NCBI GenBank assembly: GCA_031308135.1
Contig: JAHLJT010008756.1
Span: 62,982,317 to 63,046,316 of the forward strand
DNA from: Acheta domesticus
Lineage: Eukaryota; Arthropoda; Insecta; Orthoptera; Gryllidae
Length of the DNA stretch: 64,000 nucleotides
Reading direction: 5' to 3'
Shown: positions 41,006 through 63,769 of the stretch, piece after piece
How the letters are laid out: the number at the start of each line of letters is the position of its first letter
Numbering within the stretch: position 1 is the first letter of the stretch
Notes under the pieces: model-generated
What the model was told of the DNA's origin: nothing
Seen by the model: the letters and a program-made list of their open reading frames with translations, nothing else
Database searches by the model: none
Position numbers and translations under genes: made by a program

Positions 41006-41110
41006 AATGAGCGTGCCACAAAACACCAATGCCATCTACACGCAGTTTATTGCATGTGGTGAGACTGACACGTCTACCATCAGGCCTGGGTGGTACATCA
41101 GATAGAAAGC
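41006..41110 (+). repeat. Diverged local direct repeat, left copy
   Basis: AATGAGCGTGCCACAAAACA with CCAATGCCATCT recurs 460 bp downstream at 41,466 as AATGAGCGAGCCACAAAACA with CCAATACCATCT. Homology continues to the CCATCAGGCCTGGGTGGTAC block. Confidence 0.85.
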
Positions 41111-41465: not shown

Positions 41466-41570
41466 AATGAGCGAGCCACAAAACACCAATACCATCTAAC
41501 CCCGCCGGGTGGAGAGGCAACCCACACATCCACCACCAGGCCGGGGTGACACATCGGGGAGAGAAACCCA
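41466..41570 (+). repeat. Diverged local direct repeat, right copy
   Basis: The GC-rich partner of 41,006-41,110, containing CCACCAGGCCGGGGTGACAC. The left copy looks like the AT-shifted, CpG-depleted version of the same sequence. Confidence 0.85.
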
Positions 41571-42075: not shown

Positions 42076-42797
42076 TTTGTGCGAGGCCGTGCCAATTGTT
42101 GCTGGTTGATTGTGATGATGATGTGATCGTGATTCATTGTGAAATGAAAGGGTAATAATGCTCTGCTATAGTTAAAATGTGGATCAGTACATAAATAACC
42201 TTGGCAGGTGATTAGTCATAGACTGGTTAGAAACACACAATCATTTAAAAAATATCATTAGTTCATAAGTATTAACAAATATTTTAGCACTGAATTTTTA
42301 AATTGAAAGGTTGCAGATTCATTTTGATTTCATACGTTCCATATTCCAATAAGAGTAGCGGCCTCATCATTTGTTCATGTCCAGAACATTTTAAAGTATC
42401 TCTTTGGCCCTGGAGGTTGCAGTAACGTTTGGATATAAGTGAAACATTTTATCAATGAAATATCATTGAAGGATTTAATGGGGACACGAAATTGATTTTT
42501 CAGTCAAAATAGTTACTATTGGTATTTTATTTGTTTTAAGTCTTTATTATTCTCTTTTTTAAATTACGTGTTCGAAATATGTTGATAATCACCCTTACAA
42601 GTATTTTTTTATTATTTATAGACCTCGTCTCATTGGGCGTAGGTGCTGTCTCGAATACTTTTAGATACTCTTACACAATGCAGCACATAAAACTGAAAGT
42701 CTTCTAACATGCAGAAAGCAAATTAAAAACTTTATGTTCTGAAGCTCACACACATAAAAAGTCTTAAAAGGATGTATTTATTTGAAAATGTTGATTG
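42076..42797. other. AT-rich DNA without recognisable features
   Basis: No gene. Copy 2 differs here by substitutions and by a 12-bp insertion containing ATGAGTCCGTTA (about 60,970). Confidence 0.4.
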
Positions 42798-42805
42798 TGG
42801 ATGAG

Positions 42806-43476
42806 TAGAGACCGGAAAAATATGCAGCATTACACAATAAGTGCATAAACTATGTAATGAAAACCAGTAAGAATAGGTAATAAATATGTAAAATCTAAAA
42901 TAATATGTAATATTAAAATTCTCTAATTAAAAACTATTTACATAGCAAGAAATAACATTTACAAAAACTGCTCACTTTACATCATACAACTTTTCTCATC
43001 ATCAGCAATCTATTGTAATCCAGGACCGTAGTTTAGCAGCCAGACTAATCGCAATAGAAGCCGTCGCACAAACTGGTCAAATCTACGACCAGCAAACATA
43101 CACTGTAGCATCTTCATCGAAGTGTTACACGTTGGCGATCACAATTTTTTCTCGGACAAATGAAGGTTACAGATCACAAAACGAAGTGTCAATGATATTT
43201 TGGACAGCCATATTTCCTTAACAATATAGGGAAAAATGCTTATTTAAAAAAATACATCTTTTCATAAAAAAATATGAAATTAAATTGAAAAAAATGATTA
43301 AAATAAGAAATATATTGTGAAAGCAGCAAAGTATGTAATATAATACCAAATATGTAAAAATATGTAACAAAAAATTCGATATTGTATTAGGAGGGCTATG
43401 ATTCGTCAAGATTACAATTTTGAGAACGGTAAGTAGAAAGACAAAAATATGTAATTACATAAAAATTAGGTCTCTA
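42806..43476. mobile_element. hAT-like non-autonomous element (MITE), copy 1
   Basis: 671 bp with terminal inverted repeats starting TAGAGACC at both ends (left TAGAGACCGGAAAAATATG, right complement TAGAGACCTAATTTTTATG). It is flanked by 8-bp sequences TGGATGAG (42,798) and CTGATGAG (43,477). Copy 2 shows the left flank as CTGATGAG, so the ancestral target duplication was CTGATGAG, an 8-bp duplication of the nTnnnnAn type favoured by hAT elements. The interior is AT-rich with many AATATGTAA motifs, resembling subterminal transposase-binding repeats. No transposase. Confidence 0.82.
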
Positions 43477-43484
43477 CTGATGAG

Positions 43485-45149
43485 GCAAATTATGTTCCGA
43501 GGGTGGCATCTTTAAAGTCCATTTCCCGAAAGTTGATAATTTTAACACTAAATTTTCTATTTTTCCACCTTTCATTTGTAATAGGAAGCTGAAATTTTTA
43601 CTTGTTAATAAAGGTCTCCAAATTTTACTGAAACAATGTTTTTCTGCTTACCTTATTATTATTATGACTCATTCTGCAAAACTTTATTTACTTGAAAACG
43701 CGGTGAAAAAATTGCATTATGAAAAAATATCTACAAAAATGGTAAATATTTTTCAAAACAGTTGTTACAGTGATATTATGTGTGATATATCTGTAACCTG
43801 TAAAAATTTAGTAAACCGAATTTCAATGGCTTATGAGTTATTCAAACATTTAACACTTCCAGGACAGGGAATTCCGTGTCCCCTCCTCGCAGTAACTAGA
43901 CGAGCCACACCATTCTCAGAAAGCTTCGCGCTGATATTACATGTTAATATCTCGGTTTTGGAAAGTGTGGGTTATATTGTTACTATTGCATTGTATCATC
44001 AAAACTCTTATGTCTTTGCCAGATAACGGGAAAGATGAAGGTTGTTGATTACCGCAGCATACGCTAATGGCGTTCTCCAGGAAACAACTCTGAAAGTAAC
44101 TTTCTCTAAAGGAAAAGCACACAAGGAGGCTAAAAGATCAATCATTATTATAACGTCAAAAGCAAAACGTCACGATAAAAAACCCTCAGACATTATTAAA
44201 ACATTAATTTACTAATTATTAACCTCTTCTATCTACTTTAACTTAACAAAATTTCAATTATCTAAACCTAACAACTAACCTACCGTACAATACAAGATTT
44301 TCAATTCCATATTTCCCAAATAAATATTAAATGTCAATTAATGCTTGCGCACACATTTAAATGATTAAAAAACTTCACATCGCCTCACTACTAACACCAA
44401 GTATCTTGAATCCTCGACGTCGTAATATTCTCTTCGAAAACTTTATCATATTAAATTTTTCCATTAATTGCTTATGAAACCATCTCCCCTCCGAACGCTG
44501 CTAAAATATGCATCCATAACGCGGTCCGCACACATGCACCCTCTTTGGTATGATCGGAGCTCTCGATCTCTGATGTGCAAAGCAAGTGATCTAATTTATC
44601 AATAATTGTTTAATTTTCTCTACCGAGCAGTTCATTTGACTCCACGAAAACCCCCAGATATCCAGTGACACATGCTTGACATCCTGTTTTTTCCATCTTC
44701 TAAGCGTTCTCGGTCTTCACTTGTTTTTATCGGTCGCCCCGCAACAAATGCTTCTATTATGTCCATACACATTCTCCATGATTTCACACATTTTATTAAA
44801 TAAATTTCTTACTTTAAGTATCACGCATTCGAATTTGTCACACTATATATGTCTCGTTCGTATTTTATAAAATGCTTGGGGCAATAACTAGAAGAGATAC
44901 ACAATAACTGAAGGTTTGCTGTGGCTGAAGTAATTTATCTTGTTACTGATTCAACCCCTTCAATTTCTAACGTTATTTTTAATTATAAATATAATTATCA
45001 ATAAATTAACACTATCATTATAATATTTAACATCTCAATGCGGCAAAGAACATGATCGAAATTTTATGATAAAAGTTTAAGGAAGGCCATTATCATACAG
45101 GGCGTCCGGGGAGGAAATATCGAAACTTCGAACATAAGCTCTTAAGACA
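43485..45149. other. AT-rich DNA without recognisable genes
   Basis: Frames at 43,664-44,026 and elsewhere have no recognisable product and are broken in the second copy, arguing against coding function. A short ATT run (43,649-43,660) is strongly expanded in copy 2. Confidence 0.45.
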
Positions 45150-45460
45150 ATTCTAGGCATATTTTGTCTAATAATCTACGCGGATATTCCGAATGGTTGA
45201 GCCGTCTTTCGATTTTTCACTATCTGGGACCCACAAAACATGGATTCTGGCTACGCCACGTGTTAGAGTATTTTTTCTAAATTTAGCAACTGGATATATC
45301 CTTTTTTTGTTACTAAGGTCCTGTAATAAGGGTTTTTCTGTCGAAAATTTACCGTTTATTAATGCAGCATTAGATAACATTCTCTCTACTCCGTAGCGAG
45401 ACAGTAAACACAAGCATGGTCCCCGCCCGCAGTGATGCAGTTTCAGTTGGTGTCATCCGG
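45150..45460 (+). repeat. R2-family fragment
   Basis: Shares CACAAAACATGGATTCTGGC, the GTCCTGTAATA(A/C)G block and CTCTCTACTCCGTAGCGAGA with 24,570-24,750. It corresponds to the right part of the R2 copy at 22.8-24.8 kb. Confidence 0.7.
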
Positions 45461-45664
45461 AGCAAAACTAATGTATACCCTCATAAATTAATAATAAAAA
45501 TATCTTATATACATTAGTTAATAAAAATAAACATTTTTGCTCATAACATTGATTTACAATATATTAAAAACCGCATGTAATTCAGTATAATTGAAGTATT
45601 ATACTTAAAGAAATAATGAAATAATTCCAACTATAAAATTTTCTAATTGGTGTCAGCCCTAAAA
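45461..45664. other. AT-rich spacer
   Basis: Nothing identifiable. Confidence 0.4.
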
Positions 45665-45960
45665 TTGTAACACTCGGGGCGGACCGCGCCCTCCCGTAAC
45701 TACGCCACTGCCCGCCCGCACTCCTTAGCAGCGTGAGGTTGGCGGCACCACGCGGGAGACCGTTTGACGCTGTGGGGCTTCGAGCGTCCTAGCGCGGCGT
45801 CCCCGAGGCAAGACAAATCGGCAGGGATCCGTCTGTGTAATGGTGCCTCCGCCGCCACCGGCGTTCGAGCTCCGTGGGAAACCCGCGGGGAGACACCCGT
45901 GGGGATTAGCATCGGTGACAGCAACAGTGTGGTAGTGACGATTCGCCAGTTTGTTCCTTT
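45665..45960. other. GC-rich island
   Basis: CpG-rich block (CGGGGCGGACCGCGCCCTCC, GCCTCCGCCGCCACCGGCG) between AT-rich flanks. It carries open frames on both strands that are compositional. No recognisable product. Confidence 0.45.
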
Positions 45961-48869
45961 TCGAAATACTCTTTTGTTATATTGACTTAACGCAACGAAA
46001 CAGAGCAGTGAAAAACTATTTCTTAACAGACGGCATCCGTTAAACATTTTACAGTCAGCTTCCCGTTAGAGACAATGAAAACAAATGAGTTGTGGCTAAT
46101 GAAACGACACAAATACTCCTATTCCAAGAAAAGATAATTCTTATTTACATGACTTTTTTATAAGATGGTTTAATAAGAAGTGTTGAACGACATTGAGCCG
46201 ACAACACAAATAAGATGCTCTGTTCTTATAAACCTCGGCTATCGCTTTACAAACCAACTGCGACTTTTAGTTGTTTATCAGCCTAATAATGTTAATAACT
46301 GCATTACCATTCCTAATTGTAGCGTTTTTCACTCATTACTTTTACACACAATACGTTAAAGAAATATAACTATACCATTTGAAAGAAATCGTCGGCACAA
46401 ATATCAGTAAGAGAGCTACTTCTGGATAGGGAATCCCTCTCCCCGCCCCCAGTTCTGCATCAAACAATTTAAAGAATAATCAATTTAAGTTCTCTTGTTA
46501 TGATTAGAGAAAATAGGAGGCGCAAATGTAACTCGCAACACTCGTTACTCTGCAACTCACGTTACAATTGTTCATAACTTGGAAGCGATGTGTCCTGGTC
46601 ACTGGTTGTGTTTTATTCTGTCGTAATATACAAAATTACATTTTTGCGCTTCCTATTATATTTAGTGAGAATATCCAATCCCAATAATAGGGATTGGGTT
46701 CTCTCACTAAATTGGAATCATTCGAAGTTGGGTTCCAGCACAAAGTTTTTTTTCACCTTTAAAATAATAATTTACTACGTGCGGAATGTTCGCACAATTC
46801 AAATAAGTTTTAAAATATTTTTAACTATAGAAAAATAAATTTGTTAACTATTTTATTACAGTACTAATTTAAACAATGATTCACTTTTCTTTGGAAAACA
46901 GATGTATTAATGTGTGTCCAATTCCCTGAGACTTCAGGTTAGTTCTGGTTGTTGATGCGAACGAATCAAAAACATTATTTCGTTGTCCAGCATGAAGAGA
47001 ACATTTGACCTACTACGCAGTGACGTAGCTAGATTTCTCGGAGACCCCAGTCAGAAGGTTCAAATGAGGTCCCTAACTGCGATAGACAACACGAAATCAG
47101 GGCTTTCAGTTCAAGTATATAAAGGTATATAAAATAGAACAGGGAACTATGCAGATTGAATTCATCTTGTAAAACAAAAACAACTCACACTTGTAAAGTA
47201 TTTTTATAGCTTGTAAAATACTTTTATCGACAAATTTATAAAAGAAAATTTTACAAATTCATTTTTGAATACGATCTCTGGTCGTGTAGTTGAAGTCGGA
47301 CGAGCTGTGAAAATCTTTTCGCTCAACCACAGGCCCTTCTCTACGTTATTTGTTATCGTTGTTGCTGTTTTTCTTGAAATAATTTTCCCGCATTCAGTTG
47401 CAATAATAATAAGGAATAATCTGAATTAAATATTCTGATGACTAGTAGTTTATTACAGATTGTTTTATCAGAAAGTTCCCTCAACACATTATGAACAGGA
47501 ACAGCACCTTTATGGAGCTAAAATGCTCGTCCAGCAAAAACGACGTATGACCCATGTACTTTCGCGTACAACCAAATTTTAATGTCACGTTCAGAAAGTA
47601 GAGAGTTAAATAAATTCATAATCTCGGAAGAAAAGCTTGTGAATGCAGGAGAAAGTAGAAAGAAAGATTCATATAATGGAAGAAAATCAAATGTCAAAAG
47701 AATTAAATTGAATAAACAAAGGTGGATAGCCAAGAATAGAAATAACTTTGTGTGTGAAGTCCAGGCACTAATTATAGCGTGAAATGTAGAAGAGGAAGAG
47801 AAAGAAGAAGAAGAAAGTATTGAAATAATAACATATACTATATTCATATCATTGAATTTATTATCCGACTGATCCCTTTGAAAAATTATCACATACCATC
47901 GTACCAAAGTTGAATAAAAAACGAGGGAAGAGTAAAATTAAAACATTGAAATTCTCTCGTATACCGCGGGTTTTTGTATCCTAGCGTGGTCTGACTGCGA
48001 AATTGTTATAAACGACAAATTAAAGCGACAACATTGCAATAAAAAGAGTATTTCCTCAAGAGTGGAAAAAGAGACAATTATTTTTCCTAAAGTCACGATC
48101 AATTCATTGAATATTTTCATGTGTAAGCGAAAGTTTTATTTGGAGATGAAAAAATAAAATATGGGTACACTTGTTAAGATCCATTGGCATTATCTTGCAA
48201 GATTAGAGCATAAACACAAGAGAACCAAAGAGACTTTAAACGAAACAGAAAAAAACATCTAGGAGATTTTACGATACCACCAAATACTGTTTTTGACGTT
48301 CGGAGCAACGCAGAAAGAAATCCATTGACGAAAACATTCTTAGCTCTTGAAGCAGTACAAACAACATGCCTAACCGCTAATAAAACATCAATGCCAACAA
48401 ATCAATTGTTTTCAATATATAGTTTTCAAACTCTTATGTCAGTTTCCTTACCAATGATGAATAAATTGCTTGAAATGGATCAAAAACACGAAAAATATGG
48501 CGCAGGTTAATTTGTGTGTGAAAAATGTACCAAAGGATTTTCCAAGCACATTTGACTTAACGAACATAAACCACAAATATGTACTTTGTAAGAAATTGAC
48601 ATAGAAAGATGATGATGACTATCGAGAGGGAAACGCAATTTCGTTATATTTGCAATTACAAGAAAAGGTGGTTTCTGAACTGAATAAATGATCGACCGGC
48701 TTCTCAAAAAATCCGTTTGCTGGTCTACACAATAATATATCAAATAACATAAAAAGATAGTATGGACTTCGTATTTGACATTTTTGTTTTTATACGTGCT
48801 TCAATTACATAAATTCTTCAACAACAACAACAACAAAAAACAAAAAATTTTCCCAAAAGAACCGAATCA
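45961..48869. other. AT-rich DNA with no supported gene
   Basis: A 129-codon minus frame (47,518-47,907) and a 61-codon plus frame (48,325-48,510) have no recognisable domains. At 48,511-48,580 one frame reads VCEKCTKGFSKHI, a stop, then LNEHK. This vaguely resembles a C2H2 zinc finger but lacks the second histidine. Confidence 0.4.
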
Positions 48870-49330
48870 CTCAGTCTCGTTACGCCGATGGTTGTCGATT
48901 ACGACAAGGCTGTTGGTCTGCGCCGTCGGGCGGCACCTAAGGTGTCTTCGGCGGCGAAAGTGATTGCGTCGAGTCTGTTTGTTTAGGCAGGACCTCCTGG
49001 GGGCGGGGCCGAGCCTCCGCGGCGCTTCTTGCGGCTGAGAACAGATGAGGCACGCGCGGCATGCGATCAATCCCCGCGCTAACGGCCTTCCAATAGCCCC
49101 CAACCACCCACTGCACTCGCTAGCAATAGGAGGCGAAGATACCTGGCCGCCTGGTCAACTAATTACGGCTGTAGTGAAATCGTATCGAGCAGTGTTGTCA
49201 AGGTCGATGCCACCAGCGGGAGTCCATGGCACGAATGCCACGACGAAATCGCCTCTCCACGCAGTTCATAACCGCGGCATCTCTATTGTGAAACGGTGCG
49301 GTTACTAATTTGTTTCCTATCCCGACGCTA
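48870..49330. other. GC-rich island with a TAATTA-containing block
   Basis: The CpG-rich part (about 48,900-49,080) is followed by GGTCAACTAATTACGGCTGT in balanced-GC DNA. Frames of 78-87 codons on both strands are unremarkable. Candidate conserved non-coding element. Confidence 0.4.
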
Positions 49331-50066
49331 GTGGCGCAGAGACGCTCGTGGCATGCCAGGGTGCTGTGAGACGTGCCACTGCTACCAGTAGGAGATCTTG
49401 ACACCATAGAGTGAATAGATGACATATAGAGTGAACTCTCGGTAATAGTGAACATAAGTTACTGGTCCCGTTTCACTTTCGTTTCAAATAAGCATAAGTA
49501 GGTTCGGTTATAGTGAACACTGAACCTTGGCTACAGTGAACGTAGGTAATACGTCCTGGAAATTGATGTGTTCCTGGGGGGAAAATATATCACTTAAGTG
49601 CCACAGATTCCCAAAGCTTGGCAGCTTCGAAAACATATCATCAGCCAAAGGTCATAATCCAAGAAGTCTCCCCTGAGGTAGAGGTAGCGGACCCACAATG
49701 TTTCATTCAGCGATCAGTTTTATTAGCCGCTTGCGCCATGCCGTTACCGAAAGAATCTCGTAAGTTATTAGGTGAGTAAATGAGTCTTCGGAGAGTAGGG
49801 CGGTATTCCAACAGTGCAAGAGGCATTGAAGGGTGTCAGGAGTGCAATACGATATAGAGACAGTGGACAATGCAGAATCAAGTGTGGAGACAGCACGAAC
49901 TCGAAAAGGTCCCAGAAAAAATACTAATGAAAAATGTACGCAGCAAACATTTGAAAATAATTGATTTCTTTCAGGTCAAGTAAAGATATTTAAATTTTCA
50001 GTTGACGTTATTAATGTATCTCTACATTAATAAAATTAATCATTATGGAGAAACTATTTATTTTTC

Positions 50067-50078
50067 ATACCATCGGAT
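50067..50078. repeat. Target-site duplication of the Jockey-like element, 3' side
   Basis: ATACCATCGGAT, identical in all 12 bases to 54,545-54,556. Confidence 0.95.
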
Positions 50079-50089
50079 TTTTTTTTATT
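50079..50089 (-). promoter_or_regulatory. Poly(A) signal merged with A-tail
   Basis: The minus strand reads AATAAAAAAAA directly at the target-site duplication. The hexamer AATAAA (50,084-50,089) overlaps the start of the A-run that marks the 3' end of the element. Confidence 0.8.
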
Positions 50090-50205
50090 AAAATGTTCTT
50101 GTTGGGTATTACATAGTTCAGTGGAACTTACACTATACATATGTTTTTGTTGCTTATAACTAACTTACATACTAAACTTAATCTAATACATAGGTGAGGA
50201 AACCA

Positions 50206-52930
50206 TCATTGGTACCTCTTAATTGTCAATTTCGGCGAATTTTGTAGGAAAATGTGGAATGGGTATTTATTTTTAATTCGGGTTGGTTGGGTTGGGTTAC
50301 GGCCGAGGTTGAGAGCTTTTAGGGTGGAGATTTGTGGGATGGTGTAGTAGAAATTAGTGGAGAGGTAGTTAATATGGTTGGCTATGGGTTCTATGGATAA
50401 TTCTTTATGTAGTTGATCGTTGGTGACAAACCAAGGGGCGTTAGTGATTATTCTGAGGAACTGGTTTTGGAAGATTTGAATTTTGTGGATATTGGTTTTT
50501 GCGGCGTTGATCCAGATGGGACATGCGTATAAAAGGAGGGGTCTTAAGATGCTTTTATATATTATAATAGCTGTGTTATATGGCAGTGAGGAGTTTCTAT
50601 TGATGATAGGTTTTAATTGTAGTAGTTTTACTTTTGCTTGATTAACTTTATTTTGTATGTGTTTTTTCCAGTTGAGTTTCGTGTCTATGTGCAATCCAAG
50701 ATATTTAATTGTGCTATTCTGTGGATGCCAGATTATTGGTTCATTATTTAATGTCAGAGGAGTGGGTGGAGAGTACGGTCTGAGGGTGAATATTTTAGCA
50801 GCGGTTTTGATGGGTTCAGTTGGATTTTCAGTTTAGTGGCCCAGCTATCGATTAGATTAAGATATAATTGCATTTTGTTGCGTATTTCGTGTAAGTCACG
50901 TCCTGAAGAAAATAGTGCCGTGTCGTCGGCAAATTGAGCGATTTTTATTGAATTTAGTGTTGGTAAGTCTGCTACATAGATATTGAAGAGTATGGGAGAG
51001 AATGGTGATCCTTGGGGGAGGCCAGCATTTATTTGCCTTGGGTTTGAGTGATGGTTATTGACATTAACTGAAAATGTTCTGTTGGATAGAAAACTGCGGA
51101 TAATTGAGGTGATGTAATGAGGGGTTCCTATTTTTTTGATTTTGTATAGTAGCGCCTGATGCCATGTTCTGTCAAAAGCTTGGGTTATGTCAATAAAAAT
51201 GCCTATTGTATGAAATTTTTTCTGGAATGAAGAGTATAAGTGTTCTGTGATTCTTAGTAACTGATGCTGAGTTGATATGTTTTTGGTGAATCCAAATTGT
51301 TCGCGGGGGATGGTTTTTGTGTCTCTTAAGAACTGGGTTAGACGTTTCAGAATTATTTTTTCAAATACTTTGGCTAACGTGGGCAGTAAGCTTATAGGAC
51401 GGTAACTATTTAGTGCTGTAGCAATTTTGTTAGGTTTGGGTACGGGGATAACTGTTGCGTGTTTCCATTGTTGGGGGAAGTATGAATTCCTGAAACAAGA
51501 ATTGTATATATTGGTTAGGAATGCAATTGCGGGAGGAGGTAAATTTTTTAATATGTTGTTATTAATGTTATCATGTCCAGGTGCTTTTTTACGTGGTAAC
51601 TTTTTTATTATTATATTTATTTCTGCTGGGGATGTATATTGTATTTTCGGGTGTGGATCATAGCAGGGTTCGATTTGATTTTTATTAATTGTGTTGTGTT
51701 CGGGATGGGGTTTGGTTACGTTTGTTTTAAATGTTGACGCGAAGTAATCAGCTAACTCTTCGGCTTTCTGAATAGAGGTGTATGCTTTGCCCGTTGTTGT
51801 GTTTAGTGTAGGTATAATTGTCTTTTTATTAAGTATTTTTTTTGTAAACTGCCATAGCGTATTATTTTTAGTGGTGAGTTGTTCTACTAACTTGTGATAT
51901 TGTTGATTGTTGTGGGTATTGATTAATCTTTTTACTACGTTTGTTATGATATTTAATTCTTTTTTAAGTTCAGGAGTTTTTAAGTGGGTCCATAGTCTTC
52001 TTGTTTTGTTTTTAACTTTGATTGCTTTGAGTATTTCGGGAGGGAGCTCTTGATTTTTAGTTTTTTTAGTTTCTTCAGTGTTTATATGAGACTCTTCTAC
52101 GGTAGTGTGAATTATTGTGTTGAAATGAGAGTGAGCATGTTCAATTTCGATAGGGCTATTGAGTATTTTGAAAGCGGGTATTTTTACACTAACGATTTTT
52201 TGGAATTGGTTCCAATTTATTCTGCCTATCTTAGATTTGGGTGCTGGGGCATGTTGTGGTGCAAGCTGCTGCGTGGTTATTAACACTGGGATGTGGTCAG
52301 AATCTAATTCGAATATAGGGGTAGAAAAGAATGTTATATTAGAGTTGGTAATGCCGATGTCGAGAATGTCTGGATTTTTATTGCGGTCGAATGGATAATA
52401 TGTAGGTTCAGCGGGAGTGATTAATTTGAGTTTTAGTATGTTAGCGATTTGTGATAGTATGAGTCCATTTTGATTGTTGTGTCGGCATCCCCAGTTAGTA
52501 TTCTTAGCATTGAAGTCGCCAATTAGTAATGTGTTGTTCGAAGATTGAAAAAGGTGTCTAAAATTGATATCCTTAATTTTCGAAGTTGGGGATTATATAC
52601 AGTTATTATGTTCCATATGCTGTTATTTATTATGGCGCGGATGGCTATGGATTCAGTTCTTGGGGAATTTAACACGTCAATTTGATGATGTATTATACTT
52701 GTTTTAATTGCTACTAGCACTCCGCCGCCTTTGCTTTCAGACCTGTCTGACCTGTAAATTGAATAATTGGGAATGTATAATTTGTTTTTCTTATTTAGGT
52801 GGGTTTCGGTAATGCCTGCAATATCTACATTGTATGCATGGAGAAATTGGGTTAGTTCAGTCTTTTTGTTAGATACGCCATTGGCGTTCCAATTTACTAG
52901 AACTAATCCTTTATGGGCCTGTATTGCCAT
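50206..52930 (-). CDS. Jockey-like ORF2: APE endonuclease and reverse transcriptase, two frameshifts
   Basis: Starts at ATG 52,930 and ends at TGA 50,206, about 908 residues if the frames are joined. It nicks target DNA and copies element RNA by target-primed reverse transcription. The N-terminal APE-type endonuclease shows NWNANG, ITETHL (catalytic Glu), RSDR..GGG, GDFNAKN..WG and SDHIPV. The reverse transcriptase shows SYRPISLLP, FGF, IFIDITQAFD, GLPQGSPFSP and FADD (near 50,925-50,940), then LYK..LRPLLLYACP and LRIITNAPWFV. Frame breaks fall at the T-run 52,548-52,552 and the A-run 50,805-50,808 (given in element sense). Each is explained by one missing base. No RNase H domain is visible. 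The three pieces have no internal stops, so the gene is recently intact or intact with sequence errors. Confidence 0.93.
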
Positions 52931-54406
52931 TATTATTATTACTTAAGTAAGCTGAGACTGAGTTTTGAATTGCATTTATTATGGTGGGGATTAGAGAATT
53001 TATGAAATTTACAATGCAGGATGAAATTGAGTTAATAATTGTATTTAGGAGTGGGTAATTTGAATTATTAGTACGAGTTGGTGGTTGATTAGGGTTATTA
53101 CGTGGATGTCTCGAAGTGATGGGTTGAGTTTGATTTTGAGGATTTGAGATATGAGTGAAATTATTGATTAAATTTCTTTCGGGTAGATTTGGGAAGTCTG
53201 AGAGGGATTGAGTAGAGGGTGGGGGTGTAGAGGCTTTCGTATTTTCATTATTGTTTTTCCTAGAATATCGCTGACTTTTTGTGTCACTAATTTCCTTATA
53301 ATATCTGCACGAATTGTCTCTAATGTCTGCTTTATGCTTCCCATGGCAGTTAGCACAAAGCGGATCTTCATTCTTGCGGGGCATGTTGCGGTGTAATGAT
53401 TACCTGCGCAAAATGCGCAGTGAATTTTGTGATTACAGTTGTTCTTAGTGTGACCATAATCTAAGCACCTTTGACACTGTATTGGACCTTTGGGTTTTCT
53501 TCTTTTTTCGGTGGTGACTCTGTGGTTGCAAATTGAGTTTATAGTTAATATTGATTCAATGGGTTCTGCGCCACTAAATTCTGCTGCTACTACTGGGATT
53601 GGTTTATTGTCCTTATTTAACCTAGTAATTTTTATAATTGAAGGGTGTTGCGATTTTAAATCTTCTTTTATGTCGTCTTCGGAAATTGATGTATGCAGAT
53701 TTTTGAAAACAACCGAGTATTTATTATTTGCGGGATCTTTATACGTGTGGAAGCTTCTTTGTGAATGTATTAAGTATTTTACAATGTTCCTATAGTCTGT
53801 TGCTGAACTTGAATTTATTTTAATTTTATTGTTTTTAACATCGGTAATGAAATTTTTGGTAACTTTGGTTTTGAGTTCATTTATGAAATTGCTGACGTTA
53901 GGAATGTTGGCTACATAAATGGGTGGAATTCTGTTAGCTGGAATTATCTGGTCGTTGCACGTTTCTTTGAGATAAGGAAATCTGTTGCTTTCAGGGCCTT
54001 CACCGACTTCACCAAGTTCGCCGAACATGTTTCTAGTGGGTACATTATATTCGTAATCAGTGGATGATTTGGAATTTTCACCCGCTCTTTCACTTGAACG
54101 ATTGATTTTCTTGTTTTCGGTTTCACTTTCACTGTCACTAACACTCACTGACCTTTTGTTTTGTTGATGTGGGGCAGGAGCTGGCGGTGGAGTCCCGTAG
54201 AACGCGTTGTGCTGAGTCAAGGCTTGGTTGACGATGCCCTCGCCATTGAGTAGAGCTGGCGAAGCTGCGTTGCTGGTGTCCATATCTACGCTGGTTTCCA
54301 AGGAGGTCAGCTCTGAATGCCCTTCTTGGTTGATGTCTGCATTGTGCAGGGTGTAAAGGGCTTGGCTAATTGCCTGCCCTGTGGATGAGTCTATGGCATA
54401 TGCCAT
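52911..54406 (-). CDS. Jockey-like ORF1: gag-like nucleic-acid-binding protein, one frameshift
   Basis: Starts at ATG 54,406 and ends at 52,911, about 498 residues if joined. It would coat element RNA and escort it to chromatin. The N-terminal 150 residues are polar, with a PPPAPAP run and an acidic/Ser-rich KRSVSVSDSESETENKK stretch. The middle (residues about 170-310) resembles the PRE/C2HC-associated domain of arthropod gag proteins. Zinc knuckles follow: CQRCLDYGHTKNNC (CX2CX4HX4C) and CAFCAGNHYTATC. A third, CANCHGKHKADIRDNSC, lies after a frame break in the C-run at 53,378-53,381, where one C appears missing. The C-terminal tail is Asn/Pro-rich. It overlaps the ORF2 start by 20 bases. 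Confidence 0.9.
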
Positions 54407-54510
54407 AGAAGCTTTGCACTGTTTGTTTGAGTAGAAACACTAGGTGTAATATCACTTATAACACGGTGTAAATTATAGCACGTTGTCGGTTTTGCGGAGC
54501 GCTAGAGAGC

Positions 54511-54544
54511 AGGTCCGCACCGCTCGGAGTCTCGTGCTGGAATG
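54511..54544 (-). promoter_or_regulatory. Internal Pol II promoter of the retrotransposon (Inr + DPE)
   Basis: On the minus strand the insertion junction reads TCATTC, matching the arthropod initiator TCAKTY with A at 54,543 as +1. GGACCT at 54,516-54,511 fits the downstream promoter element RGWYVT exactly at +28 to +33. The initiator T comes from the target-site duplication. This spacing is that of TATA-less arthropod promoters and of Jockey-type elements, which must carry their promoter inside the transcript. Confidence 0.85.
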
Positions 54545-54556
54545 ATACCATCGGAT
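54545..54556. repeat. Target-site duplication of the Jockey-like element, 5' side
   Basis: ATACCATCGGAT, identical to 50,067-50,078. Confidence 0.95.
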
Positions 54557-54628
54557 ATATTGAACCTCTGATACGGTGAACCAAAAACGTTAGTCCCCAG
54601 AGGTTTGCTATAGCCGAATTTTGCTGTA

Positions 54629-55581
54629 CTTCGTAAGCGTAGGTCTAGTTCGGGCTGCGACGGGTACGCCTGCATTCAGCCTAATAAAACTGTGAAAATC
54701 AACAAAAAACGAACAAAAGTTAGTAATGCGGGACTAACATACACTTATAATACCCTCTTATTACTAACTTTATTTTGCATATCTCTGAAGAGGTCGTCTT
54801 GTGATTGAATGTGAAATGTTTGCAATGTGAAAATAAAATCACACAATAGCTGAGGTAATCCTTGACTGACTCCGCCGACTTAAGGTCTTTCCTTCATAAA
54901 CTACCTCTGGATCAATCTGCGAAAATCAAATAGTAGTGTGTTAAAATTGTTTAATTCTATTTATTCTTTGATTCCGACGCAAGGCAGGGTATTTCAGCTA
55001 GTAATCCAATAAAATGAGAAAATAAAAATATTATAGTGAGAGATGGGGAGTATAATTTCCTTTGAGAGCATGAAAATGAAACATTCTGCCTATGCCTTCT
55101 CATTTTTTTAAGCAAAGAAATTCATTCAATAAACTAGTTTCTAATTAAAAATTGGGCTTTGCTTCAAAATAACCAACATCGATTTTTCCAATTCATTCTA
55201 TTAAAAAATCATTCAAGAAATATGGATTAATATTAAAATAATGACAAAACTCTCTGGAAACATACTGGCAATAAGAAAAATCTGAACCATAAAATTTTGC
55301 TACATAGTCTTATGGAACTGCTGATGGATCTCTTGTCGGAAACAAGCACCGTGAGACGGCAATTCATTCAATCATTGCCTTATTCTTACTCAGTTTGTTA
55401 ATTCATTAATTAATTCAGTCAATCAGAAAAATCATTCACTTGCTTACTCACCAAATCATTCAATCATTCCAGTCATTCATGTAGCAATTAAATCAGCAAC
55501 TTTTTCCGTCAGAAAATCATTGCGTCATCCAATCGCCGTGCACATCACTCTACATTTCCGCACTGTCAAAACATTTACATT
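54629..55581. other. AT-rich DNA with a degenerate ATTC/AATC run
   Basis: No gene. 55,355-55,490 contains many imperfect ATTCATTCAATCATT-type repeats just before the assembly gap. Confidence 0.5.
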
Positions 55582-56581
55582 NNNNNNNNNNNNNNNNNNN
55601 NNNNNNNNNNNNNNNNNNNNNNNNNNNNNNNNNNNNNNNNNNNNNNNNNNNNNNNNNNNNNNNNNNNNNNNNNNNNNNNNNNNNNNNNNNNNNNNNNNNN
55701 NNNNNNNNNNNNNNNNNNNNNNNNNNNNNNNNNNNNNNNNNNNNNNNNNNNNNNNNNNNNNNNNNNNNNNNNNNNNNNNNNNNNNNNNNNNNNNNNNNNN
55801 NNNNNNNNNNNNNNNNNNNNNNNNNNNNNNNNNNNNNNNNNNNNNNNNNNNNNNNNNNNNNNNNNNNNNNNNNNNNNNNNNNNNNNNNNNNNNNNNNNNN
55901 NNNNNNNNNNNNNNNNNNNNNNNNNNNNNNNNNNNNNNNNNNNNNNNNNNNNNNNNNNNNNNNNNNNNNNNNNNNNNNNNNNNNNNNNNNNNNNNNNNNN
56001 NNNNNNNNNNNNNNNNNNNNNNNNNNNNNNNNNNNNNNNNNNNNNNNNNNNNNNNNNNNNNNNNNNNNNNNNNNNNNNNNNNNNNNNNNNNNNNNNNNNN
56101 NNNNNNNNNNNNNNNNNNNNNNNNNNNNNNNNNNNNNNNNNNNNNNNNNNNNNNNNNNNNNNNNNNNNNNNNNNNNNNNNNNNNNNNNNNNNNNNNNNNN
56201 NNNNNNNNNNNNNNNNNNNNNNNNNNNNNNNNNNNNNNNNNNNNNNNNNNNNNNNNNNNNNNNNNNNNNNNNNNNNNNNNNNNNNNNNNNNNNNNNNNNN
56301 NNNNNNNNNNNNNNNNNNNNNNNNNNNNNNNNNNNNNNNNNNNNNNNNNNNNNNNNNNNNNNNNNNNNNNNNNNNNNNNNNNNNNNNNNNNNNNNNNNNN
56401 NNNNNNNNNNNNNNNNNNNNNNNNNNNNNNNNNNNNNNNNNNNNNNNNNNNNNNNNNNNNNNNNNNNNNNNNNNNNNNNNNNNNNNNNNNNNNNNNNNNN
56501 NNNNNNNNNNNNNNNNNNNNNNNNNNNNNNNNNNNNNNNNNNNNNNNNNNNNNNNNNNNNNNNNNNNNNNNNNNNNNNNNN
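55582..56581. other. Assembly gap of exactly 1,000 N
   Basis: One thousand unknown bases. The round length indicates a scaffolding placeholder and not a measured distance. The apparent frame across it is meaningless. Confidence 0.99.
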
Positions 56582-56693
56582 AATATTAACCCTTCTAAAA
56601 TGTAACCAGTGTAATAAAATAACTTGTATACGTTATTTTATTAATATAAGTGAATTGATACACTATTTATTTTCGGAAGGGTTAGTTTTGTTT

Positions 56694-57236
56694 AAGTTAT
56701 TTCGGTCGCCGTCAACTTGCCAAGATCATTATTCCCGGTAAGTGTAGAACATGTTTTTATCGCCGGAGGTTTGCGTGATCTTTCCCCGCTGGATGGTGAG
56801 ATGTGCCGGCGAATTACCCGCCGGCTTGCGGGGTTTACCTCGACCAGGTTCTCCCACTGGGGTACCGCCCCAGTCGTTTCAAGCTCTAAGCTCCGACTGG
56901 TCTCATGGTATTTGGGGTAATGTAGGGCATGTACGTACAAGTGCGTGTAAGGGAGGATAGGCCAGGGAAGAGGAGAGAAATATCGCGGCAGTCCATGGCC
57001 GTTTGTCAGGGTTCAGCTCCGGCCTTCGACTGGCGTTAATCCGAAGAACCACGGAAAACTACGCTCAGAGCAGCCGGACGATGGAATTCTCCTCCAGACA
57101 GCGGCTGAATACGACATAACTATCTAGCAAGTATCGAAAATCCTGCCACGTCGAGATTCGAACCAAAAGGCCTCCCGTTACGCTGCACAGCAGTGACATG
57201 AATTGATGCTATGAGTCACCTAACCAGGTAAGATGT
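56694..57236 (-). mobile_element. tRNA-derived SINE, second copy of G
   Basis: Same insertion as 38,103-38,646, with several single-base differences (for example an extra T in CAACTTGCCAAGATC). Confidence 0.85.
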
Positions 57237-57713
57237 AGTCTCTTTAGTAAAAGTAAAAGCATTATGACCTTACGCTTTTATAAAAATATTTTTTTGTAAT
57301 AACGTTATTTCATTCCCAATGTGAAAGTAAAACGATCTGGCATTTATTAAATACTAACTAAAAATTACGAGTATAGACTTGCCTATACAAAAACAGAAAA
57401 CTAGCATACAGCAAAGCATTTAAGTAAACAGCATGGGTACGACCATCTATCACTGTAAACGGGCAATATCACAAACAAATAATGACCAATGGTAATTTAG
57501 GACGCTTCTGCATAAGGAGGGTGACATAAAAATCAATTAATATAATGGAGATAAAGCGCCATTAATTATCGGGAAGCGCCGTATCAATTCGACCTCACAC
57601 CCTTTTCCAAAACCATAAGATGAGCGCTGTGGGAGGGGTATGGACCATGTGAAGGGGAGACAGTGGATGAAGTAGGAGGTTGTGATGCTTCAACGAAGAC
57701 TACCATGATTATT

Positions 57714-58225
57714 TGATTGATGGACATTCCGGGCATATCAATGGCTAAGGTCACTAGTCCCGTAAGCGTAGTGCATGCTTTTTCGCTCGGGAGGTGGCGG
57801 CTATCTTCCCCCGGTGAATGGCGGGATTCCGCCCGACCGACCATCGGCGGAGTTCTTGCCACCCAGGTATCGCCCCACCAGTGGAGCACCGCCCCAGCCT
57901 GGACAAGCTCTGAGCTCCGACCGGCATTGTGGTAGTGTAGTGCTTTTTAATGTAAGTGTCTGTGAAATGGATAAGGATAGAATAGGGAAGAGAAAGGAAA
58001 GATCGCGCGCGGTCGTGGACCCGTTTGTTGGGCTACGCTCAGTATTCTCCTGGTGTTGATCGGAAAACCACGAAGAAATACCCATCAGAGCAGCCGGCCG
58101 CTAGAATCTTACTCCAGATGCGACTTAATCGACCTAGCTGACAAGCTAGTGTCGAAAAATTCGGCTTTCGTGCGACTCGAACCTAGGATGTCCGGTCAGA
58201 GCCACTGCAGTGACATCAGTGATGT
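57714..58225 (-). mobile_element. tRNA-derived SINE, second copy of H
   Basis: Same insertion and same missing box A end as 39,146-39,667. About ten single-base losses make it slightly shorter. Confidence 0.87.
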
Positions 58226-58489
58226 CCATGGAGTAGTGGGATAATCCAATGGAAATAAAATATAAGAGAGAGATTGAAAGATGTGAATAGTAATGAGGAC
58301 GTAGAAGGAAAACAATATGTAGATGATCTCACATGGCAAATATAAGAACGGCGAGACTGAAGAATGGTGAATGGCAAAATAAGAAGTGAAGAAACTAGAA
58401 CGATAGGGAATGTTTTTAAGTAAGACTGTAAACTAAGTAATTCAGCAAAGAATGGAGAAAAACCAAGACTGTAACTGGTGAAGCCGCAA

Positions 58490-59550
58490 CAGCACGTACT
58501 TTCTCCCATCATTTCTGACGGTTGCGTACAAATGTTTTAAAAAAGTTCAATATTTGCTTTTGAAATGTTTGAAAATTCAAAGATTTTAAATGAAATTATT
58601 TCAAGATTTCTATTTTGCAGAAAAAAAACATTAACTGAGAAATATTTGAATCCACTCTGTTGGCACTTATTATTTTCATCACACCCTTAACTTTTTTCCT
58701 GATTTGGTCTCTAGCCCAATATGCACGTTTGAGTTGTGCACGATGCGTGTAATATGTCCAATATCATACAAATAATACTTGAGTCCATAACGTTTCTTAG
58801 GTAAATTAGTAGTGATACATCAGCTTAATGAAAAAAATGGTACTGCCTAAAATTAAATACCTACATGACCCTTTAAAAATTTAATTTTATACAACAGATT
58901 TCATTAAGAAAAATATCTACTGTTGTAGCTGTAGGAAAGATGCCGAAAAAATTAAACTACTGCAGTTTTCAAAAATTTAGAGTTCAACGAAAATCGAACC
59001 TACGCTATTTTTATAAGCGTACATTGCTCAATATGAGAATATATGAAAGAAAAAAAACTGGAGCCATTTCCTGAGAAAATTTGAAAATGTCCCCTGAAAG
59101 CTTCATGTAAAATGCATTACTAAATCAAATATCCTTGTGAAATTCAAGGCCCAGACATCAGATCACACACATCGATCGATCGCGGAAGCTGAATTGTGGT
59201 GAAAATCCTGCCTGTAAGTTTAACGCACACATTGTTCACAGATAAACATGCAGGCAGAAAGACGTTTGGCAGAAAACCAATTTTCCTCTATCAAGGACGC
59301 ACCGAATCGCGGATTGTGAGTACACAACGAATGAAAGGAAGTAATTTACATATACAAGAACAATAATTATATCTTTTTGGGGTTTCAGCAATCCACAATA
59401 CTAGTTATTCTGACGAACACGTTTTTTGCTGCAGCATTACAATACTTTCCTCTGTACTACGTAATAATATGCGAGAAAGTAAAAAAATTTTGTAGAAATT
59501 GAGAACATTATGTGATTGAAATAGTAAAACACAAGCAAACAATTTCAACA
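58490..59550 (+). repeat. R2-family repeat, second copy
   Basis: Corresponds to 39,920-40,945, sharing all its blocks. Small indels only. Confidence 0.6.
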
Positions 59551-59569
59551 TTTTTCGGTACAAGTGAAT

Positions 59570-60125
59570 GAGCGTGCCACAAAACACCAATGCCATCTAC
59601 ACGCAGTTTATTGCATGTGGTGAGACTGACACGTCTACCATCAGGCCTGGGTGGTACATCAGATAGAAAGCACTATTTTCACATTGTTTTAATGTGGCAT
59701 CACAACAAACTGACTCTTCTTTTGTATAGAATATACAGGAATCGGCTATATATATCTTTTTAACAATATTGTGCGTGTTCTCGAAAAAAAAATGCTTCAT
59801 AAAAAAGAATTTCCCTGTTGAAGTTCATAAATGCCATTACGACTTGAAACATATTTAATGTCTACCTTGTGACACTTTTTATGTCTAAGAAATACAAAAT
59901 ATATACATTGAGATAAAACACGATTTAAAAAAATGCGGCAAGAATTCAGAACACTGAAAAATCAAAACCCAAAAAATCAAGTTCGACATTCTTCACACGC
60001 AAACCAGAGGTCGCAAGGTTAATGAGCGAGCCACAAAACACCAATACCATCTAACCCCGCCGGGTGGAGAGGCAACCCACACATCCACCACCAGGCCGGG
60101 GTGACACATCGGGCGAGAAAACCCA
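59570..60125 (+). repeat. Local direct-repeat pair, second copy
   Basis: AATGAGCGTGCCACAAAACA near 59,568 and AATGAGCGAGCCACAAAACA near 60,021 repeat the pair seen at 41,006 and 41,466. Confidence 0.8.
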
Positions 60126-60625
60126 CACGAGGGAGAAAGCGAAGCTCGGAGAGGGGGGGCGCGTGATATGTCCGCTGCTGAGCGCGTATGCAGATTTTTG
60201 GAAATTTTCATTTTTAATCGCGCCCGCGATGATAAATTTACAAACAAACGAAAGCCGAGGACAAATTTGCTGGTGGAAGCGCGGGGGGGATTCGCCCGCG
60301 TTCAGTGGAAACGCGGACGCGTTCGCGGGCCGCCGATAGCATCTACAGAGCCGCGCTGGCGGACCGCCACCTATCTATTATGACACATTGTTAAAATTTC
60401 TATCAAACATTTTGTATTATCTCTGCGTAAATAAATGAATGATTGGGCGCGCTGCCTGGGCGAGCGGTGGGCCGACCGCTCGGCCGGGGCACTGCGACCG
60501 TGAGGCTTCCCCTACCGCGCCCATTTGCATGAAAATTGCGGGACGTGGTTGCGGGCGAACGGCAGGCGAGAGGCGTGTTGTTTTATTGGAGGCTCGGTTT
60601 TGAGAAGCGATGCACGAGGCTGAGA
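60126..60625. other. GC-rich island, second copy
   Basis: Corresponds to 41,571-42,075, with the forkhead-like and ATTTGCAT motifs preserved. Confidence 0.45.
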
Positions 60626-61368
60626 AAGTTTGTGGGAGGCCGTGCCAATTGTAGCTGGTTGATTGTGATGATGATGTGATCGTGATTCGTTGTTAAATGA
60701 AACGGGTAATAATGCTCTGCTGTAGTTAAAATGTGGGTCAGTACATAAATAACCTTAGCAGTGATTAGTCATAGCTGGTTAGAAACACACAATCATTTAA
60801 AAAAATACATTAGTTCATAAGTATTAACAAATATTTTAGCACTGAATTTTTAAATTGAAAGGTTGCAGATTCATTTTGATTTAATACGTTCCATATTCCA
60901 ATAAGAGTAGAGGCCTCATCATTTGATCACGTCCAGAACATTTTAAAGTATCTCTTCGGCTCTGGAGGTTATGAGTCCGTTACAGTAACGTTTTGGATAT
61001 AATGTGAAACATTTTATCGATGTAATATCATTGAAGGATTTAAGGGGACACGAAATTGATTTTCAGTCAAAAATAGTTTACTATTTGGTATTTTATTTGT
61101 TTTAAATCTTTATTATTCTCTTTTTAAATTAGTGTTCGAAATATGTTGTTATCACCCTTACAAGTATTTTTTTATTATTTATAGACCTCCTCTCATTGGG
61201 CGTAGGTGCTGTCTCGAATACTTTTAGATACTCTTACACAATGCAGCACATAAAAAACTGAAAGTCTTCTGACATGCAGAAAGCAAATTAAGAACTTTAT
61301 GTTCTGAAAACCCACGACATAAAAGTCTCAAAAGGATGTATTTATTTGAAAATGTTGATTCTGATGAG

Positions 61369-62041
61369 TAGAGACCGGAAAAATATGTAGTATTACACGT
61401 CAAAATATGGGCATAAATATTTAATGAAAACAGTAAGAATATGTAGTAAATATGTAAAATCTAAAATAATATGTAATATTAAAATTCTCTAACTAAAAAC
61501 TATTTACATAGCAAGAAGTAACATTTACAAAAAACTGCTCCCTTTACATCATACAACTTTCTCATCAGCAGCAATCTATTGGAATCCAGTAATCCGTAGT
61601 TTAAACAGCCAGACTAATCGCAATAGAAGCCGTTTCACAAACTGGCAGATCTACGACCAGCAAACACACACTGTAGCATCTTCATTGAAGTGTTACACCT
61701 TGGCGATCCCCAATTTTTTCTCGGAAAATGAAGGTTACAGATCACAAAACGAAGTGTCAATGATATTTTGGACAGGCATATTTCCCAAATAATGTAGGAA
61801 AAATGCTGATTTAAAAAATACATCTTTTCATAAAAAAATATGAAATTAAATGAGAAAATTGATAAAATAAGAAAATATATTGTGAAAACAGAAAAATATG
61901 TAATATAATACCAAATATGTAAAAATATGTAACGAAAAAATTCGATATGTATTAGGAGGGCTATGATTCGCCAGGATTACAACTTTGAGAACGGTAAGTA
62001 GAAAGACAAAAATATGTAATTACATAAAAATTTGGTCTCTA
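61369..62041. mobile_element. hAT-like non-autonomous element (MITE), second copy
   Basis: 673 bp with TAGAGACC termini. The 8-bp flanks are CTGATGAG (61,361-61,368) and CTGATGAA (62,042-62,049), one mismatch. Many AATATGTAA-like motifs inside. Allelic or duplicate partner of 42,806-43,476. Confidence 0.82.
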
Positions 62042-62225
62042 CTGATGAAGCAAATTATGTTCGGAGGGTTGCATCTTTAAATCTATTTCCCGAAAGTTGA
62101 TAATTTTAACACTAAATTTTCTATTTTCCACTTTCATTTATAATAGGAAACTGAAATTTGTAGGTCTCCTTTAAACTGAAATTAAGGTCTCCAAAATTTA
62201 CTGAAACAATGTTTTTCTGGTTACC

Positions 62226-62226
<1 letters not shown>

Positions 62227-62257
<31 letters not shown>

Positions 62258-62275
62258 TATTATTATTATTATGAC
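62227..62275. repeat. Expanded ATT microsatellite
   Basis: About 15-16 ATT units with one interruption, against about four in the matching place in copy 1 (near 43,650). Confidence 0.95.
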
Positions 62276-63769
62276 TCATTCTGCAAAACTTTATTTTACT
62301 TGAAAACGCGGTGAAAAAATTGCATTATGAAAAAATATCTTTATCTACAAAATGGTAAATATTTAGCAGTTGTAGGTAAAAAAAATAAACAGTTGTTACA
62401 GTGTGATATTATGTGTGATATATCTGTAACTTGTAAAAATTTAGTAAACCTAATTTCAATGGCTTCTGAGTTATTCAAACATTTAACACTGCCAGGACAG
62501 GGAATTCCGTGTCCCCTCCCGCAGTAACAAGACGAGCCACACCATTCTCAGAAAGCTTCGCGCTGATATTACATGTTAATATCTCGGTTTTGGTGAAAGT
62601 GTGGGTTATATTGTTACTTTGCATTGTATCATCAAAAACTCTTATGTCTTTGCCAGTTATAGGGAAAGATGAAGGTTGTTGATTACCGCAGCATACGCTA
62701 ATGGCGTTCTCCAGGAAAACTCTGAAAGTAACTTTCTCTAAAGGAAAAGCACACAAGGAGCTTAAAAGATCAATCATGTATTGTAACTTCAAAAGCAAAA
62801 CGACACTATACAAAAACCTCAGACATTAATAAAACCTTAATTTACTAATTACTAACCTCTTCTATCTACTTTAACTTAACAAAATTTTAATTATCTAAAC
62901 CTAACAACTAATCTACCGTACAATACAAGATTTTCAATTCCATATTTCCTAAATAAATATACAATGTCAATTAATGCTTGCGCACACATTTGAACGATTG
63001 AAAACCATCACATCGCCTTAATACTAACACCAAGTATCTTGAATCCTCGACGTCGTAATATTCTCTCCGAAACTTTTTCATATTAAATATACTCCAATTT
63101 TTCCATTAATTGTTTATGAAACCATCTCCCCTCTGAACGCTGCTAAAATATGCATCCATAACGCGGTCCGCACACTGGTGTGATCGGAGCTCTCGATCTC
63201 TGATGTGCAAAGCAAGTGATCTACTTTCTCAATAATTGTTTAATTTTCTCTACCGATCAGTTCATTTGACTCCACGAAAACGCTCCAAATATCCAGTGAC
63301 ACATGCTTGACATCCTGTTTTTTCCATCTTCTAAGCGTTCTCGGACTTCACTTGTTTTTATCGGTCGCCCCGCAACAAATGCTTCTATTATGTCCATACA
63401 CATTCTCCATGATTTCACACATTTTATTTTTTTCGAAATTTTTATTAATTATTTTCACGAAATTCTTTCTTTAAGTATCACGCATTCGAATTTGTCACAC
63501 TATATATGTCTCGTTCGTATTTTATAAAATGCTTGGGGCAATAACTAGAAGAGATACACAATAACTGAAGGTTTGCTGTGGCTGAAGTAATTTATCTTGT
63601 TACTGATTCAACCCCTTCAATTTCTAACGTTATTTTTATTTATAAATATAATTGTCAATAAATTAACACTATCATTATAATATTTAACAACTCAATGCGG
63701 CAAAGAACATCACCGAAATTTTATGATAAAAGTTTAAGTAAGGCCATTATCATACAGGGCGTCCGGGGA

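What the first reader, a model, noticed from the sequence alone, without database searches (positions are those of the whole stretch)
50079..54544. Nearly intact Jockey-like retrotransposon with perfect target-site duplication
Seen: identical 12-mers ATACCATCGGAT at both ends, an A-tail, two overlapping ORFs with the expected motifs, and no in-frame stops. Known: this is the architecture of Jockey-clade elements. Inference: a recent, possibly active family. The particular family may not be described.
Basis: partly seen in the sequence, partly recalled or inferred. Interest (0 to 1): 0.75.

Follow-up and report, generated by a model that had tools for sequence, protein, structure and literature searches.

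The report
Recent Jockey LINE with empty allele
This is an almost complete copy of an ordinary Jockey-type jumping gene that landed here recently: dozens of near-identical copies sit elsewhere in the genome, and a second version of this same spot in the assembly still lacks it.

Summary
The element is real and full length. It lies on the minus strand at 50079-54544 between exact 12-bp target-site duplications (TSDs), with an initiator plus downstream promoter motif at its first base, ORF1 (two predicted RRM-like domains, three zinc knuckles), ORF2 (endonuclease, reverse transcriptase) and an 8-A tail. One stated detail is wrong: the frames are not open. As assembled, ORF1 has one frameshift and ORF2 three, with no substitution stop; three of the four are private to this copy among 30 aligned. 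The 2.33-Gb genome holds at least 33 further copies of the whole query or large parts of it, and 14 more 3' ends. The 29 copies aligned with it differ from it by 0.38-1.97% in substitutions; 30 of 34 copies have a TSD, all different. In the assembly 0 of 30 have a complete ORF2 and 10 of 30 a complete ORF1. Shared changes show purifying selection, private ones much less. Strongest evidence of recency: 4.6 kb beyond the window a second version of the locus carries the empty site. The layout suggests two overlapping haplotype contigs, hence a polymorphic insertion. Jockey rests on architecture; no tree with named CR1, L2 or I references could be made. Ordinary kind, recently amplified family.

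The parts
50079..54544 (-). complete Jockey-type non-LTR retrotransposon, 4466 bp, 5' end at 54544
   Evidence: bounded by TSDs; empty site; 5' end CATTCC at the start of most other copies
50067..50078 (.). target-site duplication, copy at the element's 3' end
54545..54556 (.). target-site duplication, copy at the element's 5' end
54511..54545 (-). initiator (TCATTC, its first base in the TSD) and downstream promoter element (GGACCT) at the standard spacing
   Evidence: only match of TCAKTY-N23-RGWYVT in the window; consensus recalled
54407..54544 (-). 5' untranslated region, 138 nt
   Evidence: 2-nt deletion private to this copy near 54465
53382..54406 (-). ORF1, first piece: two RRM-like domains, first zinc knuckles
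   Evidence: frameshift near 53382
52911..53381 (-). ORF1, second piece: third zinc knuckle and C-terminal tail
52592..52930 (-). ORF2, first piece: start of the endonuclease
   Evidence: Exo_endo_phos; frameshift near 52592
50809..52591 (-). ORF2, second piece: rest of endonuclease and reverse transcriptase
   Evidence: Exo_endo_phos_2 and RVT_1; frameshift near 50809
50239..50808 (-). ORF2, third piece: C-terminal region
   Evidence: no Pfam match at 0.01; P0138 is 99% identical over 191 residues; frameshift near 50238
50087..50218 (-). 3' untranslated region (end of ORF2 taken from the frame of P0138), no strong RNA fold (z -1.07)
50079..50086 (-). A-tail, 8 A, directly after AAT

Best explanation
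A full-length copy of a recently amplified Jockey-type LINE family. Inferred from architecture and from known members of the group: RNA polymerase II starts at the first bases of the element through the Inr/DPE promoter; the RNA gives ORF1 protein (RNA binding by RRMs and zinc knuckles) and, from an overlapping start codon, ORF2 protein; the endonuclease nicks the target, and the reverse transcriptase copies the RNA from its A-tail into the nick (target-primed reverse transcription). Shown here: the insertion duplicated 12 bp and is missing from a second version of the same locus, so it is younger than the split of the two versions. The copy itself is frameshifted as assembled, so it is most likely a dead-on-arrival or early-decaying copy of a source element elsewhere, unless the frameshifts are assembly errors.
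For: TSD; empty site with one target copy, 11 of 12 bases the same; 34 loci including the window, of which 31 near full length; 30 of 34 with TSDs of 9-16 nt, 30 different; window to 29 other copies 0.38-1.97% substitutions, median over all pairs 0.99%; 14 further 3' ends at 98-99% identity (40 of 907 candidates scored); substitutions shared by two or more copies 33 nonsynonymous to 36 synonymous, private ones 296 to 119, Fisher p = 2.4e-4; ORF2 domains and fold (LINE-1 ORF2p, then R2); ORF1 tandem RRM-like model; Inr+DPE exactly at the 5' end.
Against: 0 of 30 aligned copies has ORF2 of 895 aa or more in the assembly, and 10 of 30 carry a stop by substitution, so present activity is not shown. 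The Inr+DPE pattern is expected 1.08 times in a window of this make-up, so only its position is telling. ORF1 model is of low mean confidence (pLDDT 59.3; 80-90 in the RRM part) and the Foldseek TM-scores are low (0.14-0.40). No named CR1, L2 or I reference in the tree. An A-tail does not exclude CR1: Bombyx CR1B has one (PMC1925062, passages).
Confidence: 0.88

Rival explanations
1. The two versions of the locus are a true tandem segmental duplication, and the element entered one of them afterwards; the insertion may then be fixed.
For: Both versions lie in one scaffold in the same orientation. Divergence reaches 4-5% in several kilobases.
Against: The duplicated stretch begins at the first base after the 1000-N gap (56582) and ends where the first contig ends (55581 matches 69608), as expected of two unmerged haplotype contigs. 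Divergence varies from 0.50 to 5.14% per kilobase, as between recombining haplotypes.
Confidence: 0.12
2. The frameshifts are indel errors of the assembly and this copy is in truth open.
For: All four lie at runs of four identical bases, which make up with longer runs 11% of the coding span. Over 30 copies 27 of 53 private 1-nt deletions lie in runs of four or more, background 10.7%. The second version of the locus has 13-23 single-base indels per kb in its first six kilobases and 0-4 after that, so error-rich stretches exist in this assembly. Near-identical proteins from other data sets read through three of the four places in frame (P0012, P0138).
Against: Real slippage also favours such runs. 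The frameshift near 50238 is shared with 2 of the other 29 copies. P0012 and P0121, from other data sets, carry frameshifts of their own. The error-rich stretch is in the other contig, not in this one.
Confidence: 0.35
3. The family is extinct: a burst of copies from a source that is now lost or broken.
For: 0 of 30 complete ORF2, 10 of 30 complete ORF1, 10 of 30 with a stop by substitution.
Against: Only the best 34 of 4077 candidates were scored, so a source copy may be unsampled; the insertion in the window is absent from the other version of the locus; assembly errors could hide open frames.
Confidence: 0.25
4. The element is a CR1- or L2-lineage element with a Jockey-like ORF1.
For: Type I ORF1 also occurs in a few CR1 and L2 subgroups (PMC4120745, sections 6 and 7).
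Against: The CR1 subgroup with this ORF1 type and one of the L2 subgroups carry a PHD domain; none was matched here. Proteins that sources call 'mobile element jockey' are among the relatives, though such names are automatic.
Confidence: 0.06

Closest known systems
Jockey lineage of non-LTR retrotransposons (Jockey, Juan, Doc, F, Helena, Amy and others; names partly recalled)
   Same: Two overlapping ORFs, ORF1 with two RRMs and three CCHC knuckles (type IB of PMC4120745), ORF2 with AP-type endonuclease and reverse transcriptase, no RNase H match, A-tail, variable TSDs, internal Inr/DPE promoter (reported for jockey, Doc, G, I and F in PMC4748587, passages).
   Different: 4466 bp with ORF1 of about 498 and ORF2 of about 904 residues; PMC6829985 (passages) gives about 5 kb, 568 and 916 residues for Jockey. 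Placement against named references not made.
Unnamed ORF2 proteins P0001, P0002, P0003, P0004, P0007, P0015, P0074, P0097
   Same: Form one set of 9 rows with the window (SH-aLRT 99) in a 120-row tree; P0001 is 63% identical over 97% of the query.
   Different: 48-63% identical over their aligned parts, clearly other families; hosts not named.
P0012, P0121, P0138 (fragments from public data)
   Same: About 99% identical to the window's ORF2 start, ORF1 and ORF2 end: same family.
   Different: Break frame at other places than the window, or read through its breaks.
LINE-1 ORF2p and R2 (solved structures)
   Same: Best sequence and fold matches of ORF2 in the PDB.
   Different: Other clades; about 20% identity; R2 has a different endonuclease (recalled).

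Membership tests
Jockey lineage | ORF1 of type I: RRM domain(s) followed by CCHC knuckles, no PHD (all Jockey-lineage elements in PMC4120745) | tested here: met
   Two beta-alpha-beta-beta-alpha units at residues 163-287 of the model, Foldseek to tandem RRM proteins NONO and HuR at E 2.8e-4 to 1e-3; three knuckles by eye, the third beyond the frameshift; no PHD match in Pfam. PRE_C2HC in 14 of 18 alignment members at E up to 0.1, the window itself below the curated cut-off (E 0.015)
Jockey lineage | ORF2 with AP-type endonuclease and reverse transcriptase, no RNase H | tested here: met
   Exo_endo_phos, Exo_endo_phos_2 and RVT_1; no match for the C-terminal piece at E 0.01
Jockey lineage | A-tail and variable target-site duplications, no fixed target | tested here: met
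   30 of 34 copies with TSDs of 9-16 nt, all different; tails mostly A, some with T or C inside
Jockey lineage | Reverse transcriptase groups with named Jockey elements and apart from CR1, L2 and I | tested here: inconclusive
   Tree of 120 rows has no verified named reference of these clades; Araneus proteins that are called 'jockey' by automatic annotation are distant
Jockey lineage | Internal RNA polymerase II promoter with initiator and DPE | tested here: met
   Motifs at the right place; function not tested
I clade | RNase H domain in ORF2 (recalled) | tested here: not met
CR1 or L2 lineage | Position in a reverse-transcriptase tree | not testable with these tools
Same family as the other genome copies (80% rule of Wicker, quoted in PMC6829985 and PMC4120745) | At least 80% DNA identity over at least 80% of the coding region | tested here: met
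   29 copies at 0.38-1.97% substitutions over the full length

The most novel reading that the evidence does not exclude
A Jockey family, perhaps not described, that is still moving in this 2.3-Gb genome: this insertion is heterozygous in the sequenced material, both alleles were assembled end to end, and a source copy with open frames exists outside the 30 copies sampled or is hidden by assembly indels.
Probability: 0.45. Interest if true: 0.35.

Novelty: new member of a known kind. Interest (0 to 1): 0.25.

Why it matters
It is a textbook element, but an unusually clean case: both the filled and the empty version of one locus are in the same scaffold, so insertion, target duplication and relative age can be read directly. 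It also warns that this scaffold holds the same locus twice across a gap, which would inflate gene and repeat counts, and that frameshifts in recent repeats of this assembly must be checked in reads before a family is called dead.

Tried and rejected
Considered and rejected: (1) Open, intact frames as first stated: four frameshifts. (2) A programmed frameshift as explanation: three of the four are private to this copy among 30, and near-identical proteins lack them. (3) My first thought that the whole second version of the locus is error-laden: the single-base indels are dense only in its first six kilobases, the rest looks like real divergence. (4) Poly(A) as proof against CR1: Bombyx CR1B has it too. 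(5) Relatives in prokaryote and viral contigs: pattern matches, none confirmed. (6) Naming the host: no named record; a guess from memory (a sharpshooter of similar genome size) was looked up in one paper search and not followed, listing only. (7) Rfam and tRNA scans of the window: nothing. (8) A shared 3' end between this LINE and other repeats in the window: no blastn match of the element elsewhere in the window.

Rows dropped: from the copy alignment L035, L039, L040 and L041 (truncated, interrupted or lacking one end), 4 of 34; P0012 was left out of the tree. Loci without a TSD of 9 nt or more: L032, L035, L038, L041. An earlier count said '31 of 33 with a TSD'; the count, 30 of 34 with the window, is the right one.

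Full report
The observation. The 12-mer ATACCATCGGAT stands at 50067-50078 and 54545-54556 and nowhere else in the window (0.01 expected). Between the two copies lies a 4466-bp element on the minus strand, 5' end at 54544 and an 8-A tail at 50086-50079. The stop-to-stop frames give ORF1 from 54406 to 52911 in two frames and ORF2 from 52930 in three frames; against near-identical proteins a last break shows near 50238. So the statement 'no in-frame stops' fails: there are four frameshifts, near 53382, 52592, 50809 and 50238, and no stop by substitution in the 1344 codons examined. Each break lies at a run of four equal bases; runs of four or more make up 11% of the coding span.

What it is. The pieces of ORF2 match Exo_endo_phos (8.1e-8), Exo_endo_phos_2 (2.3e-13) and RVT_1 (6.7e-37); the C-terminal piece matches nothing at 0.01, in particular no RNase H. 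The ORF2 model (580 residues, pLDDT 87.7) is closest in the PDB to LINE-1 ORF2p and then R2, as is its sequence. ORF1 gave no Pfam match at 0.01; at 0.1 the window shows PRE_C2HC below its cut-off, and 14 of the 18 aligned ORF1 proteins show it. The ORF1 model (pLDDT 59.3 overall, about 80-90 in most of residues 161-290) has two beta-alpha-beta-beta-alpha units, and Foldseek finds tandem-RRM proteins (NONO 2.8e-4, HuR 4.3e-4; 8 matches at E up to 0.001; TM-scores low; one non-RRM fold among the first twelve). With three zinc knuckles this is the type IB ORF1 that PMC4120745 (abstract and two sections read) reports for the larger of its two Jockey subgroups; a few CR1 and L2 subgroups have related ORF1s. 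A pattern for initiator and DPE (consensus recalled) matches once in the window, exactly at the element's first base; since 1.08 matches are expected by chance, the position and not the count is the evidence. PMC4748587 (passages) lists jockey, Doc, G, I and F among insect elements with such a promoter.

Relatives. Of 926 related proteins the best 120 were listed. One fragment, P0012, is 99% identical over a third of the query; the next, P0001, is 63%. ORF1 (17 hits) and the end of ORF2 (18 hits) give one 99% fragment each, P0121 and P0138. In a quick tree of 120 rows the window pairs with P0001 (SH-aLRT 100) inside a set of 9 (99) and of 11 (99); none of the 11 has a named host.

Copies in the genome. 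The window's genome has 2,328,301,720 bases. A search with the element gave 35 matches at 34 loci (34 of 4077 candidates scored): the window, 30 near full length, one interrupted copy in two rows, and two 5'-truncated ones. A search with 314 bases of the 3' end gave 40 matches (40 of 907 candidates scored), all at 98-100%; 14 are new places. Both are lower bounds. I fetched the 33 other loci. Of 34 with the window, 30 have a TSD of 9-16 nt, mostly 11 or 12, and all 30 differ; the duplicated target begins with A in 29 of 30, preceded by T or C in 27 of 30, and 18 of 30 copies have 1-4 extra bases at the 5' junction. The A may be favoured by ambiguity with the tail. Four loci lack a clear TSD.

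Age and decay. In the alignment of 30 near-full-length copies, pairwise substitution distance is 0.09-2.44%, median 0.99%; the window is 0.38-1.97% from the others and has 7 private substitutions. Three of its four coding frameshifts and a 2-nt deletion in the 5' UTR are private; the break near 50238 is shared with two copies. ORF1 of 490 aa or more: 10 of 30; ORF2 of 895 aa or more: 0 of 30. Ten of 30 copies have a stop by substitution. Substitutions shared by two or more copies are 33 nonsynonymous to 36 synonymous (0.25 per site), private ones 296 to 119 (0.68), p = 2.4e-4: the source lineage was under purifying selection and the copies much less. Assembly errors would also count as private. 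Of 53 private 1-nt deletions 27 lie in runs of four or more (background 10.7%); of 47 private 1-nt insertions 8 do. This fits sequencing error and real slippage alike, so whether the window copy is truly frameshifted is open.

The empty site. The window has a gap of exactly 1000 N at 55582-56581, and 56582-64000 repeats 37995-45344. Reading on, 64001-68582 continues to match up to 50077 and 68572-69608 matches 54545-55581: the second version has the flanks but not the element, with a single target copy that differs in its last base. The repeated stretch begins at the first base after the gap and ends at the last base before it, as two overlapping, unmerged haplotype contigs would. Substitution divergence per kilobase is 0.50-5.14%; single-base indels are 13-23 per kb in the first six kilobases and 0-4 after that, so the start of the second contig is of poor quality. 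A true tandem duplication is not excluded. Either way the element entered after the two versions split.

Mechanism. Shown: insertion with target duplication, many separate insertions with variable targets, A-tails, 5'-truncated copies, selection on the source lineage. Inferred from the Jockey group: transcription from the internal promoter, ORF2 translated from an overlapping start, target-primed reverse transcription. Not shown: transcription, present mobility, host identity. Verdict: an ordinary member of a known kind, recently amplified, most likely polymorphic at this locus.

Noticed in passing
window 37995-55581 and 56582-64000, going on to L042/L043 (window coordinate 69608): The same locus stands twice in the scaffold on both sides of a 1000-N gap, with and without the element; most likely unmerged haplotype contigs.
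   Followed up: yes
window 56582 to about 62600: 13-23 single-base indels per kb against the first version, 0-4 further on: a poor-quality contig start.
   Followed up: partly
window 923, 1927, 6119, 32696, 38581, 39622, 57163, 58182 (minus strand): Eight copies, two of them in the repeated locus, of a dispersed repeat with a tRNA-like B box (GTTCGA) followed by a conserved block: a probable tRNA-derived SINE family. No match to Rfam or ARAGORN.
   Followed up: partly
window 34264-35540 and 8374-9023: Tandem arrays of about 105-bp units and of about 17-bp units, the latter giving long low-complexity open frames on the plus strand.
   Followed up: no
L032 and L035 (C1565, about 45 kb apart, opposite orientation): Two copies of the element with similar left flanks and no TSD: perhaps one insertion inside an inverted duplication or another assembly artefact.
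   Followed up: no
L040: A copy interrupted by roughly 520 bp of foreign sequence near element position 2040 and lacking about 75 bp near 3133-3208.
   Followed up: no
30 TSDs: The target duplication starts with A in 29 of 30 copies, with T or C before it in 27 of 30 and T five bases before it in 18 of 30: a weak endonuclease preference, partly blurred by the A-tail.
   Followed up: partly
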